A stretch of 33,274 nucleotides of DNA from Bacilli bacterium (lineage in GTDB: Bacteria; Bacillota_I; Bacilli_A; RFN20; CAG-826). The notes below the pieces were generated by a model. The model was not told where the DNA came from, did not search any database, and saw nothing but the letters and a program-made list of their open reading frames with translations. The position numbers and the translations under genes were made by a program. The stretch lies in contig JAKSVG010000009.1 in the NCBI GenBank assembly GCA_024408105.1, positions 1 through 33,274 of the forward strand, given 5' to 3'. Positions 19,119 to 24,000 of this stretch are shown here, piece by piece. Position 1 is the stretch's first letter, and the number at the start of each line of letters is the position of its first letter.

Positions 19119-21860
19119 TTATTTTGCTGTTATTCGCTTAATAAATTTTATCAATACAACAATTTCGTGAACAATTAATGGAGATACACACATTGCTGCT
19201 GTAATAAGCCATTCATTAACAGAAAGATCGGCTGTCGAGAATATTGATCTCATAAATGGTGCTTCAATAACAAACAATTGAAGAGCAAGGCCAACAACAA
19301 AAGCAATTAGCATCATCCAGTTTTTGCTCTTGAAAACATGGATAAATGATTTATTTTGATTACTCATTCCAACCATATGAACCAGTTCAGAAATTGCCAA
19401 AGCAGTAAACGCCATTGTTCTTGCTTGGGCAAGTATAGGTGAATCACTTGCTATAGTAGCAATTGAACCCCAATCAGTAATACCGTTTAACCAGAATGCG
19501 CTAAAATAGGCAAGCAAGACAGAAACAGTAATAACCGTCCCATACCCGATTGTGGTAGCGAAACCACCATGACTGAACAAGGAATCTTTCGGGTTTCTTG
19601 GCTTTTCGTTCATGTTATTCGGGTCTTTAGGATCCATCCCTAGAGAAATTGCAGGGAGAGAATCGGTAATCAAATTAACCCAAAGTAAATGTATTGCGAT
19701 AAAAGGAGAAGGGAAACCAATACAGATAACAATAAACATAGCCAACACTTCAGCTATATTACTAGATAGCAAGAATAGAACTGTTTTCTTGATATTGGCA
19801 TAAATGCCGCGTCCTTCTTCAACAGCTTTTTCAATTGAAGCAAAATTATCATCAGTAAGAACCATATCGGCTGAAGATTTAGCAACATCTGTTCCAGTTA
19901 TTCCCATAGCAATGCCTATATCAGCAGCTTTTAATGACGGAGCATCGTTAACACCATCACCTGTCATTGCGCATATATTTCCGTTTGCTTTAAAAGCTTT
20001 AACAATGGAAACTTTATTTTCCGGGGAGACACGCGCAAATACTCTAATGGTTTTAACCTTTTCTTGTAATTCAATTGGGGACAATTTATCGATGTCAGAA
20101 CCCATCATACATTGATCGATTTCGTCTGCTATGCCTAAATCTTTTGCAATAGCAAACGCAGTATCTTTGTGGTCTCCTGTAATCATTATTGTAGTAATAC
20201 CAGCATTTTTAAACATGCTAACGGCTGGTTTAGCCTCTGGTCTTGCTGGATCTATCATCGCTGTTAAACCAACAAACACTAAATCATCTTCCTTTATTGA
20301 TTCAATATTTTCTTTATATCCTAGTGCAAGCACACGCAAAGCCTTATCCGAGAAATATTTGTTAGCCTTATTAATATTTTCAATATCTTCTTGTGAAATA
20401 TTTCTAACTTCACCATTAATTAAAATTTTTGTTGTGTGTTTTAAAATGCTGTCCAATGCACCTTTTGTAAACATAATATTTCCGTTAGATAATTTGTGCT
20501 TTGTTGACATCATTTTTCTAACGCTGTCGAATGGTAACTCATCGATTCGAGGCATTTGAGTTTCCAATGATTTCTTATGCATATCAAACTTATTTGCCAT
20601 AGCAACAAGACAAATTTCAGTAGGATCACCAAATTCACCTTCATCAACCGTTGCATTTGAACATAATGACATTCCATATGCGAGTTTTCTTAAGCTCTCT
20701 TCTTTTGAATCTTTATTAAAATCAATATGAACAAAATATTTATCATTTGCATATGCTTCAACAACAGTCATCTTGTTTTGAGTCAATGTTCCAGTTTTAT
20801 CAGAACACACAACGCTAACTGCGCCAAGTGTTTCAACGCTAGGAAGCTTTCTAACAACAGTATTTGCTTTAACCATTCGTTGAACACCAATAGATAAAAC
20901 TATAGTCACAACAGCAGCAAGGCCTTCAGGAATGGCGGCTACTGCAAGAGCTATAGCACTTAAAATGCTATCAATCCAAGAATGGATGTCAGATTGAGTA
21001 TTATGGACAAATATATAAATGATATCAACGACTAAAACTAAAACTACTATTACAATAGTAATTATTCCTAAAATTTTACTTAACTTAGATAATGCTTTTT
21101 GAAGCGGTGTCTGCTCATCCTCGTTTTCTTCTAACGCAGTTGCAATTTTTCCAATTTCAGTATTCATTCCAGTAGAGGTTACAATTCCTTTTCCCCTACC
21201 ATAACTAACTGGTGTTGACATAAATGCCATGTTGACCCTATCACCTAAAGCAACCTCATCAGAAAAAGTAATTGAAGCATCTTTTGTAACAGGCACAGAT
21301 TCACCAGTCAAAGATGATTCGTTTGCCTTTAAATTTACTGATTCAACGAGCCTAAGATCGGCACCAATTGTGTCTCCTTCTTCTAGTAGAACAATATCAC
21401 CAATAACAAGGTCACTCGATTTAATTTTTATTCTTTTTCCATCACGGATAACTAGCGATTCAGGAGAAGACATATCTTTCAATGCATCTAGTGAGGTTTG
21501 AGCCTTCATCTCTTGAACTGTACCAATTATTGAATTCATTATTATGACAGCCAAAATGATAATAACATCAGGCCAGTCTCCAGTTTTGACGAAGTCAAAT
21601 GGATTTCCTGCACTTACTGTTTTAATCGTTTCATAAATTGAAACTCCAATTGTGACTGCAATTGCGGCAAACAAAACAAAAATCATCGGATTATTCATTT
21701 GCTCAAAGAAAACTCTAATCCATGATTTCTTTTTCTTTTCAATTAATTTATTTGGGCCGTATAAAGATAGGCGCCTATTTGCCTCTTCAGCAGTTAAACC
21801 TACTTCGATGTCGGTATTAAGTTCACTTTTTGTAGACTCAATTGTTTTTTGTTCGAACAT
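19119..21860 (-). CDS. P2-type cation ATPase (Ca2+/Mn2+ exporter)
   Basis: 913 residues, membrane, ATP-driven cation export. The actuator loop LTGESVPV lies near 183-190, the phosphorylation site is D354 in DKTGTLT, the hinge is TGDGVNDAPSLKAADIGIAMG, and there are ten expected membrane helices. M4 has AAIPEGLAAVV and M6 has LLWVNLITDSLPA, so the Glu and Asn-x-x-Thr-Asp ligands of SERCA/PMR1-type pumps are kept, which points to Ca2+ and/or Mn2+. The Lactococcus homologue YoaB is controlled by a yybP-ykoY Mn2+ riboswitch. The same RNA motif lies in this leader, so Mn2+ detoxification is the best reading. The ATG at 21860 has GGAG at proper distance. Confidence 0.93.
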   Translation of the reverse strand: MFEQKTIESTKSELNTDIEVGLTAEEANRRLSLYGPNKLIEKKKKSWIRVFFEQMNNPMIFVLFAAIAVTIGVSIYETIKTVSAGNPFDFVKTGDWPDVIIILAVIIMNSIIGTVQEMKAQTSLDALKDMSSPESLVIRDGKRIKIKSSDLVIGDIVLLEEGDTIGADLRLVESVNLKANESSLTGESVPVTKDASITFSDEVALGDRVNMAFMSTPVSYGRGKGIVTSTGMNTEIGKIATALEENEDEQTPLQKALSKLSKILGIITIVIVVLVLVVDIIYIFVHNTQSDIHSWIDSILSAIALAVAAIPEGLAAVVTIVLSIGVQRMVKANTVVRKLPSVETLGAVSVVCSDKTGTLTQNKMTVVEAYANDKYFVHIDFNKDSKEESLRKLAYGMSLCSNATVDEGEFGDPTEICLVAMANKFDMHKKSLETQMPRIDELPFDSVRKMMSTKHKLSNGNIMFTKGALDSILKHTTKILINGEVRNISQEDIENINKANKYFSDKALRVLALGYKENIESIKEDDLVFVGLTAMIDPARPEAKPAVSMFKNAGITTIMITGDHKDTAFAIAKDLGIADEIDQCMMGSDIDKLSPIELQEKVKTIRVFARVSPENKVSIVKAFKANGNICAMTGDGVNDAPSLKAADIGIAMGITGTDVAKSSADMVLTDDNFASIEKAVEEGRGIYANIKKTVLFLLSSNIAEVLAMFIVICIGFPSPFIAIHLLWVNLITDSLPAISLGMDPKDPNNMNEKPRNPKDSLFSHGGFATTIGYGTVITVSVLLAYFSAFWLNGITDWGSIATIASDSPILAQARTMAFTALAISELVHMVGMSNQNKSFIHVFKSKNWMMLIAFVVGLALQLFVIEAPFMRSIFSTADLSVNEWLITAAMCVSPLIVHEIVVLIKFIKRITAK

Positions 21861-21862
21861 AA

Positions 21863-21880
21863 ATTACTCCTTCAAGTAAT
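21863..21880 (-). promoter_or_regulatory. RBS-sequestering hairpin linked to the riboswitch
   Basis: Minus strand: ATTACT, loop TGAAGG, AGTAAT. The loop and 3' arm contain the AAGGAG Shine-Dalgarno (21867-21872). Its 5' arm shares two bases with the 3' strand of riboswitch helix P1, so the two structures compete. Confidence 0.5.
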
Positions 21881-21956
21881 CGTCTCGCGCATTTACTAAT
21901 GGTTAGGTTCCGGGTGTTATGCCGTGATGACGGTTCCTAACTGAGCTACTCCCGAT
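21879..21956 (-). ncRNA. Compact yybP-ykoY (Mn2+) riboswitch
   Basis: Minus strand, 78 nt. P1 is ATCG/CGAT (21953-21956 with 21879-21882). The 5' strand continues with the hallmark GGAGTAGC and the 3' side has GCGCGAGA, together forming the L1 metal-site loop. P3 is GTTAGG/CCTAAC (21936-21941 with 21902-21907), enclosing the conserved CCGTCATCACGG...CCCGG L3 loop. A small hairpin CATT/AATG (21890-21901) closes the junction. The order matches the Lactococcus yoaB element without one of its side hairpins. It starts about 3 nt after the predicted transcription start and ends 7 nt before the Shine-Dalgarno. The D-arm-like AGCTCAGTT text makes it look like a tRNA at first glance. Confidence 0.8.
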
Positions 21957-21965
21957 ATGGCTTAT

Positions 21966-21993
21966 ATTATAACCAATAATACTAATAAAACAA
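21966..21993 (-). promoter_or_regulatory. Promoter of the riboswitch-ATPase transcript
   Basis: Minus strand: TTGTTT (21988-21993), 16-bp spacer, perfect TATAAT (21966-21971). Start expected near 21959. Confidence 0.75.
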
Positions 21994-22022
21994 TTGTTAT
22001 ACAATTAAATTGCATCTATAAT
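21994..22022 (+). promoter_or_regulatory. Promoter of the acyl-AMP ligase gene
   Basis: TTGTTA (21994-21999), 17-bp spacer, perfect TATAAT (22017-22022), then 7 nt to the ATG at 22030, so likely leaderless. Its -35 abuts the -35 of the divergent ATPase promoter. Confidence 0.75.
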
Positions 22023-22029
22023 TTTGTCT

Positions 22030-24000
22030 ATGGAAAAAGTGAAGCACAAAACATCTCGTTGTGATATGTCGGTATTTTATGAGATTGCCGATAGACTAAT
22101 GACAACAGAAAAAACATTTAAAGATATTTTTGAACTTCATGCAAGAGATGATATCAGAAATAAAAACGGAAAGATTTTTATATACGAAGAATCTGGTAAA
22201 ACAATATCAATAAAATATAAAGAATACTATTCTTTAGTTATGAAATATTCCCAAGCCTTATCTAAGTCTCTTATAGACATAGAAAAGGGCAGTTTTGTTG
22301 CATTCAAAATCACAAATTCAGTCAAATTTCCACTTGGTTTTTGGGGTTTAATATCAGCAGGTTATAAACCATTATTAATCAATCCAATTTTAAGTAAAGA
22401 AGACACAATAAAATTGATTCATGAATCCGATGCAAAAGCAATTATTTCTGAAAATGATGAAAGTTATGATATTAAAAACGTCAACATTTTGACTATCGAG
22501 CTAAAAGAAGAAAATAAAAATCCTTGTTGGGAAAATGAAATGGCGTTTTGCACAAGTGGGACAACTGGAGACTCAAGAATTTTTGGATATTCCGGAAAAG
22601 AAATGTCCTACCAAATATATTCTGCTTATACAATGCCTGATGTAACTGCGGACATAATGTATGTTGGCAATGTTAGGCTTTTAGCTGTAATTCCTTTTTC
22701 ACATATATTTGGTTTCGTCGCAATTTTCCTTTGGTATACATTTTTTGGAGCAACAATCGTTTTTCCTAATTCAAGTTCGCCGAATGATCTTCAACAAGCA
22801 TGCATAAAATATAAATGTACACATTTATATGCGGTGCCGTTATTTTTTGAAACTTTAGTATCAAAATTTAAACATACGGTTGCTCTAGAAAAAGAGTCGA
22901 AACAAAAACTCGTAGATAAAGTAATAAGATACAAGAATAAATATATCGCTAAAGCAGAGGCTGGCTTAGCAAACAAGAAATTTGTTTTAAAAGCAATCCA
23001 AAAGAAAGTTCTTGGCCCACAGATTGTTTACTGTATTGCAGGTGGTAGCGCACTAGGGAAAGAAACATTAGAAATCATGAACGGAATCGGATATAACTTG
23101 TATAACGGTTATGGCATGACAGAAATAGGTGTAACTTCAGTTGAGCTTTCGCCAAATGTTTCACAAAGAAATAAAGCATCAGTAGGAAAACCATTATATG
23201 GGGTGACATATAAAATAGAAAATAACGAATTATTAGTAAAATCAAACTATATACATTCTTTTAGAATGATAAATGGTAAAAAAGAAATCCCAGATATTGA
23301 TCAAGATAGTTATTTCCATACTGGGGATATAGGTGAAATTAAAGATGGCTACTTATATATAAAAGGAAAAGTTAAAGATGTTATCATTGGTTCAAACGGA
23401 GAAAATATATATCCTGATGAAATTGAAGTAAAATTTAGGAAACTTCAAAACGTGTTAAATCTTTCCTTAGTGGGAGTGCCAACTGAAAAAGGTGAAATAT
23501 TAACTTTGTTTTTAAACGTTGATCAAACAATTGATAAAGGCAAAATAAAAGACTTGGAAAATTCGATTAAAGAAATAAATGAGACATTGCCTCAGCCAAT
23601 GCAAATAAGAGATATCTATATTTCAAGAAACCCTCTTCCAATGAATGCATCTTTAAAAATTAAAAAATATGCATTGATAGATGATTTCAAAAATAATAAA
23701 AGTAATTATTTAAAACTTTCAAGCGGAGAGATAGTATCGTTTGAAGGATATGATAAAAAATTAGTTGAAGAAACCGTTTCAAAATTAATTAAAATCATTG
23801 CAAATGTCCTTTATATTGATAAAAAAAATATCGCTCCAAATAATCATTTTGTAATTGATTTAGGTGGCGATTCATTCTCTTATATGTCATTAATTGCTGA
23901 TATCGAAACTAACTTCAATATAGAAATTAAGACTGATTTAATCGGTAAGCTAAATAGTGCGAACGAATTCGCACTATATATACTTCAGAATAAGAAATAA
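22030..24000 (+). CDS. Acyl-AMP ligase with C-terminal acyl-carrier domain
   Basis: About 656 residues. The adenylation domain (about 1-540) carries TSGTTGDSR (A3), NGYGMTE (A5), YFHTGDIGEIKDGYLYIKGKVKDVIIGSNGENIYPDEIE (A7-A8) and NASLKIKKY with the A10 lysine. A helical insert near 280-320 recalls long-chain fatty-acyl ligases. Residues about 575-656 form a phosphopantetheine carrier domain, DLGGDSFSYM with the attachment Ser615. The protein can therefore activate an acid and load it onto its own carrier. No condensation, thioesterase or acyltransferase gene is nearby, so the acceptor is unknown. The frame reaches a TTG at 22024, but ATG 22030 is preferred. It ends one base before the convergent Nudix stop. 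Confidence 0.88.
   Translation: MEKVKHKTSRCDMSVFYEIADRLMTTEKTFKDIFELHARDDIRNKNGKIFIYEESGKTISIKYKEYYSLVMKYSQALSKSLIDIEKGSFVAFKITNSVKFPLGFWGLISAGYKPLLINPILSKEDTIKLIHESDAKAIISENDESYDIKNVNILTIELKEENKNPCWENEMAFCTSGTTGDSRIFGYSGKEMSYQIYSAYTMPDVTADIMYVGNVRLLAVIPFSHIFGFVAIFLWYTFFGATIVFPNSSSPNDLQQACIKYKCTHLYAVPLFFETLVSKFKHTVALEKESKQKLVDKVIRYKNKYIAKAEAGLANKKFVLKAIQKKVLGPQIVYCIAGGSALGKETLEIMNGIGYNLYNGYGMTEIGVTSVELSPNVSQRNKASVGKPLYGVTYKIENNELLVKSNYIHSFRMINGKKEIPDIDQDSYFHTGDIGEIKDGYLYIKGKVKDVIIGSNGENIYPDEIEVKFRKLQNVLNLSLVGVPTEKGEILTLFLNVDQTIDKGKIKDLENSIKEINETLPQPMQIRDIYISRNPLPMNASLKIKKYALIDDFKNNKSNYLKLSSGEIVSFEGYDKKLVEETVSKLIKIIANVLYIDKKNIAPNNHFVIDLGGDSFSYMSLIADIETNFNIEIKTDLIGKLNSANEFALYILQNKK
23954..23977. 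repeat. Perfect 10-bp hairpin inside the 3' end of the ligase gene
   Basis: ATAGTGCGAA, loop CGAA, TTCGCACTAT. No T-run follows on either strand. It lies 21 bp before the stop codon, where two convergent genes meet without a spacer, so it may stand in for a terminator or protect the 3' end. Confidence 0.5.

What the first reader, a model, noticed from the sequence alone, without database searches (positions are those of the whole stretch)
21863..21956. Minimal Mn2+ riboswitch that seems to switch translation of a P-type ATPase
A 78-nt yybP-ykoY element with short P1 and one fewer side hairpin than the Lactococcus form. Just after it an ATTACT/AGTAAT hairpin traps the Shine-Dalgarno, and its 5' arm shares two bases with P1. 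Metal-stabilised P1 would weaken that hairpin and free the ribosome site, giving an ON switch without a terminator, as expected for an exporter.
Basis: partly seen in the sequence, partly recalled or inferred. Interest (0 to 1): 0.6.

Follow-up and report, generated by a model that had tools for sequence, protein, structure and literature searches.

The report
Compact manganese riboswitch before cation pump
An uncultured gut-type bacterium carries, just before a metal-pump gene, a short RNA sensor of the well-known manganese-sensing class that most likely lets ribosomes start making the pump only when manganese is plentiful; it is a good example of a known kind, overlooked because the standard database model is too strict.

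Summary
On the minus strand, 21956-21879, lies a 78-nt RNA with the yybP-ykoY Mn2+-riboswitch core, 18 nt before the start codon of a P-type Ca/Mn-type ATPase (19119-21860). Rfam RF00080 finds nothing, but that test is not valid: the same model gives E. coli mntP 41.6 bits (cut-off 45) and misses E. coli alx altogether. A covariance model built only from the window and its relatives finds both E. coli riboswitches (alx E 2e-5; mntP E 0.03) and the element in 131 of 279 genomes of the order, 124 of 135 times before the same ATPase, with very strong covariation. The missing P2 hairpin is real but ordinary: E. coli alx and many phyla show the same three-way form. The anti-Shine-Dalgarno hairpin is also real: across 93 relatives the P1 3' strand pairs better with its own ribosome site than with others' (z -8.2), and no terminator lies between. 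A translational ON switch is therefore the best-supported mechanism; Mn2+ binding itself was not testable. New member of a known kind. In passing: relatives place the element before SPFH-protein genes.

The parts
21966..21971 (-). -10 promoter box TATAAT; start site expected a few bases before P1
   Evidence: sequence; exact TATAAT within about 40 nt upstream in 38 of 124 related elements, against 4 in the 55 nt further upstream. The consensus scanner did not list it because the -35 (TTGTTT) is weak
21879..21956 (-). 78-nt Mn2+ riboswitch aptamer, three-way-junction form
   Evidence: homologous to E. coli alx and mntP
21953..21956 (-). P1 (P1.1) 5' strand AUCG, pairs with 21879-21882
   Evidence: compensatory changes among relatives; own arms pair better than swapped arms
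21879..21882 (-). P1 3' strand CGAU; also the foot of the anti-RBS hairpin
21945..21952 (-). L1 5' strand GGAGUAGC, with P1.2 pairs G21946-C21887 and C21945-G21888
   Evidence: near-invariant in 100 relatives
21883..21888 (-). P1.2 3' strand end and L1 3' strand GCGAGA
   Evidence: near-invariant AGAC end
21931..21941 (-). P3.1 5' strand GUUAGG-AA-CCG, pairs with 21902-21912 CGG-AA-CCUAAC
   Evidence: covariation
21902..21912 (-). P3.1 3' strand
21924..21930 (-). L3 5' strand UCAUCAC; U21930, C21929, A21928, A21925, C21924 correspond to L. lactis U39, C40, A41, U44, C45 of the Mn2+ site
   Evidence: same length and letters except U44->A (phosphate contact only); site residues from PMC9190785; L. 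lactis letters from memory
21913..21923 (-). P3.2 hairpin GG-CAUAACA-CC
   Evidence: covarying in relatives
21890..21901 (-). P4 hairpin CAUU-AGUA-AAUG
21862..21881 (-). anti-ribosome-site hairpin, 8 bp with GAAG loop, excludes 3 of 4 P1 pairs
   Evidence: -5.8 kcal/mol; swap test z -8.2 over 93 relatives, control region z -1.4
21867..21872 (-). Shine-Dalgarno AAGGAG, 6 nt before the AUG
   Evidence: sequence
19119..21860 (-). P-type ATPase, P2A Ca2+/Mn2+ type, 913 aa
   Evidence: Pfam E1-E2_ATPase, Cation_ATPase_N/C; best NCBIfam TIGR01522 below its cut-off; closest solved: Listeria LMCA1

Best explanation
It is a member of the yybP-ykoY Mn2+ riboswitch class in its three-way-junction (P2-less) form, acting as a translational ON switch for a cation-exporting P-type ATPase. 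Shown here: the conserved L1/L3 core, the covarying helices, homology to the proven E. coli riboswitches, the association with the ATPase, the absence of an intrinsic terminator, and a conserved hairpin that uses P1's 3' strand to cover the ribosome site. Inferred: with little Mn2+ the P1 strand stays in the anti-ribosome-site hairpin (OFF); Mn2+ binding between L1 and L3 docks the two legs, stabilises P1, dissolves that hairpin and frees the Shine-Dalgarno (ON), so that surplus Mn2+ is pumped out.
For: Model R1 from the window and relatives finds E. coli alx (28.3 bits, E 2e-5) and mntP (17.3 bits, E 0.03). Mn2+-site letters of L3 kept. Structure: 92.9% of cells paired, 18 of 19 pairs with double changes, 0/500 shuffles as good. 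124 of 135 elements precede the ATPase. Anti-RBS pairing: 93 relatives, own pairing better than any of 20000 permutations (z -8.2), 35 of 38 strong cases use at least two P1 3' bases; control region in the coding sequence z -1.4. Energies: aptamer core with P1 -10.9; core -8.5 plus hairpin -5.8, so OFF is favoured by roughly 3 kcal/mol before any metal energy. No terminator. mntP is a known translational ON switch (PMC9603457; PMC11647493); Mn2+ binding stabilises P1.1 (PMC11087558).
Against: No RF00080 hit at any threshold, though that model also fails on alx. Minimum-free-energy folding of the leader gives another fold (-21.1 kcal/mol, no better than shuffles, z 0). P1 is only 4 bp. The Shine-Dalgarno is only half paired. 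The ATPase resembles Ca2+ pumps (LMCA1), so the metal could in part be Ca2+. Only 4 of 24 genomes of the genus carry the element. Relatedness inflates the shuffle controls; the swap test is less exposed to this.
Confidence: 0.75

Rival explanations
1. Mn2+ riboswitch that acts mainly on transcription (intrinsic or Rho-dependent termination) rather than on ribosome access.
For: About a tenth of related elements have a terminator-like hairpin GGTC-TTTTT downstream (e.g. L016, L020, L141, L145, L150); mntP in E. coli is also under Rho (PMC11647493).
Against: No terminator between aptamer and AUG in the window; AUG lies 22 nt after the first base of the P1 3' strand, too short for a terminator; 111 of 122 measurable related leaders are similarly short.
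Confidence: 0.1
2. Right RNA class, but it answers chiefly to another divalent ion or to pH in this organism, with the ATPase being a Ca2+ exporter.
For: Best solved relative of the pump is the Listeria Ca2+ ATPase LMCA1; alx also answers to alkaline pH (PMC9603457).
Against: Letters of the Mn2+ site kept, including the N7-donor adenosine (A41 equivalent); a Mn2+ riboswitch controlling a Mn2+/Ca2+ ATPase is known in Streptococcus (title cited in PMC9331361).
Confidence: 0.1
3. Conserved structured leader without ligand-dependent switching here, the downstream hairpin being incidental.
For: Hairpin is modest (-5.8 kcal/mol) and leaves half of the Shine-Dalgarno in the loop.
Against: Hairpin with changed sequence recurs in relatives (AUUACU/AGUAAU, GUAUUC/GAAUAC, GUUACU/AGUAAC, AUUGUG/CACAAU); z -8.2 against permutation.
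Confidence: 0.05

Closest known systems
E. coli alx Mn2+ riboswitch (yybP-ykoY, RF00080)
   Same: L1 GGGGAGUA, L3 CGUCAxxACG, no P2 hairpin between L1 and P3.1; found by the window-lineage model; RF00080 misses it too
   Different: alx has a much longer P4 and a longer expression platform, and controls a TerC-type exporter
E. coli mntP Mn2+ riboswitch
   Same: translational ON switch before a Mn2+ exporter; homologous core (PMC9603457)
   Different: has a P2 hairpin and a long platform in a 229-nt leader (PMC11647493), where the window leader is about 100 nt
Lactococcus lactis yoaB Mn2+ riboswitch (PDB 4Y1I)
   Same: L1 and L3 metal-site letters (PMC9190785); P1.1 as switching helix
   Different: four-way junction with P2, transcription terminator platform
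Streptococcus Mn2+ riboswitch before the Mn2+/Ca2+ ATPase MgtA (Martin et al. 2019, known here by its title in PMC9331361 and PMC9603457)
   Same: same class before the same kind of pump, ON logic
   Different: paper not held, platform and junction not compared here

Membership tests
yybP-ykoY Mn2+ riboswitch | L1 GGGGAGUAG...AGAC internal loop next to switching helix P1.1 | tested here: met
yybP-ykoY Mn2+ riboswitch | L3 CGUCAxxxCG with invariant Mn2+-binding adenosine, between P3.1 and P3.2 | tested here: met
   A21928 and neighbours match L. lactis U39, C40, A41, C45 in letter and spacing; L. lactis sequence from memory
yybP-ykoY Mn2+ riboswitch | two helical legs (P1/L1 and P3/L3) joined by a multi-helix junction | tested here: met
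   three-way junction (P1.2, P3.1, P4) instead of the crystallised four-way one; proven member alx is also without P2
yybP-ykoY Mn2+ riboswitch | homology to experimentally proven members | tested here: met
   R1 finds alx (E 2e-5) and mntP (E 0.03)
yybP-ykoY Mn2+ riboswitch | score above Rfam RF00080 gathering cut-off | tested here: inconclusive
   no hit; the same test fails on proven mntP (41.6 < 45) and alx (no hit at E 10), so it does not define membership
yybP-ykoY Mn2+ riboswitch | selective Mn2+ binding and Mn2+-dependent expression | not testable with these tools
   needs in-line probing and reporters
yybP-ykoY Mn2+ riboswitch | stands before a Mn2+ homeostasis or cation transport gene | tested here: met
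   P-type ATPase; 124 of 135 related elements
PMR1-type Ca2+/Mn2+ ATPase (TIGR01522) | score above the NCBIfam equivalog cut-off | tested here: not met
   656.9 against 798.3 bits; filed only as P2A cation ATPase

The most novel reading that the evidence does not exclude
In this Bacilli lineage the three-way Mn2+ riboswitch has fused aptamer and platform to the limit: the 3' strand of P1 is itself the anti-ribosome-site strand, in leaders of about 100 nt or less, and the same RNA has been recruited to SPFH (Band 7) membrane-protein genes, implying an unrecognised role of SPFH proteins in Mn2+ homeostasis.
Probability: 0.3. Interest if true: 0.5.

Novelty: new member of a known kind. Interest (0 to 1): 0.3.

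Why it matters
It adds a large, so far unlisted set of Mn2+ riboswitches in uncultured gut Bacilli and shows that Rfam's current RF00080 threshold misses the P2-less form, even E. coli alx, so counts of this riboswitch class are likely too low. The very short leaders are handy minimal translational Mn2+ sensors. The SPFH association, if tested, could give a function to those proteins.

Tried and rejected
RF00080 scans at gathering and at E up to 10: negative everywhere, rejected as evidence after the E. coli controls. Other Rfam chance hits near the element all lie far below their cut-offs. Single-sequence MFE folding: misfolds, no better than shuffles, not used. MAFFT-only alignment misplaces P3.1 and was used only to seed the model. 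P2-less form as a lineage novelty: rejected, since a pattern scan found at least 119 stretches across Proteobacteria, Nitrospirae, Firmicutes, Chloroflexi and Actinobacteria; one of those read, L208, looks like a chance match. Transcription terminator: none. The paper on the Streptococcus Mn2+/Ca2+ ATPase riboswitch is not held. The hairpin energies printed at the end used a wrong register and were replaced.

Full report
What was claimed and what is there. All of this is in the sequence, on the minus strand: aptamer 21956-21879, hairpin 21881-21862, Shine-Dalgarno AAGGAG 21872-21867, AUG 21860. The ORF 19119-21860 is a complete P2A-type cation ATPase (E1-E2_ATPase, Cation_ATPase_N and _C), below the PMR1 equivalog cut-off, closest among solved structures to the Listeria calcium pump LMCA1.

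Is it real? Rfam's RF00080 does not report it, even at E 10. On E. coli MG1655 the same model gives mntP 41.6 bits, under its own cut-off of 45, and does not find alx at all. The negative result therefore carries no weight. The positive evidence is comparative. Reading upstream of the orthologous ATPases showed the same core in L002, L003, L012, L014, L015, L016, L017, L018, L020, L021 and L024. A covariance model (R1) built from six of these and the window found the element in 131 of 279 genomes of the order and, in an even draw from the class, in 83 of 395. The same model finds both E. coli Mn2+ riboswitches, alx at E 2e-5 and mntP at E 0.03, which ties the lineage to proven members.

Structure. 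On 98 distinct sequences, 92.9% of pair cells are standard pairs against 67.7% after shuffling and at most 42.5% when partners are slid by one column; 18 of 19 pairs show changes on both sides. The alignment was fitted to the model's structure, so an alignment-free check was made: P1 arms and P3.1 arms pair better with their own partner than with partners of other species (P1 -3.16 against -0.74 kcal/mol; P3.1 -6.95 against -2.57). The L3 strand CGUCAUCACG has the same length as in L. lactis, and four of the five L3 nucleotides named for the Mn2+ site (U39, C40, A41, C45) are the same letters (site residues from PMC9190785; the L. lactis letters are from memory). Between L1 and P3.1 there is no room for the P2 hairpin; the junction is three-way. 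E. coli alx, read directly, is also P2-less, and a pattern for this form found at least 119 stretches in many phyla. The missing hairpin is thus real but ordinary.

Expression platform. From the first base of the P1 3' strand to the AUG there are 22 nt, with no terminator. Among 122 related elements with a measurable leader, 111 have 48 nt or less. In 93 distinct leaders the P1 3' strand plus five following bases pairs with its own ribosome-site region at -4.01 kcal/mol on average against -2.87 for permuted partners (z -8.2, none of 20000 permutations as good); for a control stretch inside the coding region z is -1.4. Of 38 strong cases, 35 use two or more bases of the P1 3' strand and 28 cover at least half of the Shine-Dalgarno. 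The hairpin is kept while its letters change: AUUACU/AGUAAU in the window, GUAUUC/GAAUAC in L034, GUUACU/AGUAAC in L051, AUUGUG/CACAAU in L134. In the window the hairpin is 8 bp at -5.8 kcal/mol and excludes three of the four P1 pairs. Secondary-structure energies put the hairpin state about 3 kcal/mol below the P1 state without metal (-8.5 plus -5.8 against -10.9), a gap that ligand binding could plausibly close (inference). The global minimum-energy fold is a different structure that is no better than shuffles, a known weakness of single-sequence folding for such aptamers.

Mechanism. Established for the class: Mn2+ docks L1 and L3 and stabilises P1.1 (PMC6754395; PMC11087558), and mntP is switched on at translation initiation (PMC9603457). 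Applied here: low Mn2+, P1 strand in the hairpin, Shine-Dalgarno partly covered, OFF; high Mn2+, P1 formed, Shine-Dalgarno free, ON. The direction follows from the mutual exclusion of P1 and the hairpin; binding and response are inferred. Some relatives instead carry terminator platforms (L016, L020, L141, L145, L150), and 124 of 135 elements stand before the ATPase.

Promoter. A perfect -10 box TATAAT (21971-21966) puts the transcript start a few bases before P1; exact TATAAT sits in the roughly 40 nt upstream of 38 of 124 related elements against 4 in the 55 nt further up.

Lineage. The window's contig belongs to a 1.03-Mb assembly (73% complete). The exact taxon was not determined.

Verdict. 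A true, well-supported new member of a known riboswitch class with a known kind of target and a probable translational ON mechanism. Its value lies in showing a blind spot of RF00080 and in the unexpected SPFH association seen in relatives.

Noticed in passing
L113, L122, L141, L145, L148, L150, L156 (genomes G088, G081, G028, G087, G184, G245): The same Mn2+-riboswitch element stands before genes for SPFH/Band 7 membrane proteins (PF01145 for L113, L122 and L145; the others by sequence likeness), mostly with terminator platforms; genome G087 has four copies. No held paper joins yybP-ykoY and SPFH.
   Followed up: partly
L280 962-1058, L281 1371-1503: Rfam 15 RF00080 scores E. coli mntP below its own gathering cut-off and does not find E. 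coli alx at E 10; the model misses the P2-less form in general.
   Followed up: yes
window 22017-22030 (+): The divergent acyl-CoA ligase/ACP-domain gene has TATAAT at 22017-22022 and an ATG at 22030, so its mRNA may be leaderless.
   Followed up: no
L006-L010: Only 4 of 24 genomes of the genus carry the element; several others have a 69-70% identical ATPase directly behind an upstream gene with no riboswitch, suggesting loss or rewiring.
   Followed up: partly
L089, bases just after the element: Extreme economy: GACCUGGAGGUCUUUAUG, where the P1 3' strand GACC can pair with GGUC across the Shine-Dalgarno in a 4-bp hairpin.
   Followed up: no
L158: An element with a terminator-like platform comes before a short reading frame followed by a glycine-transporter/TRIC-like gene (PF03458).
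   Followed up: no
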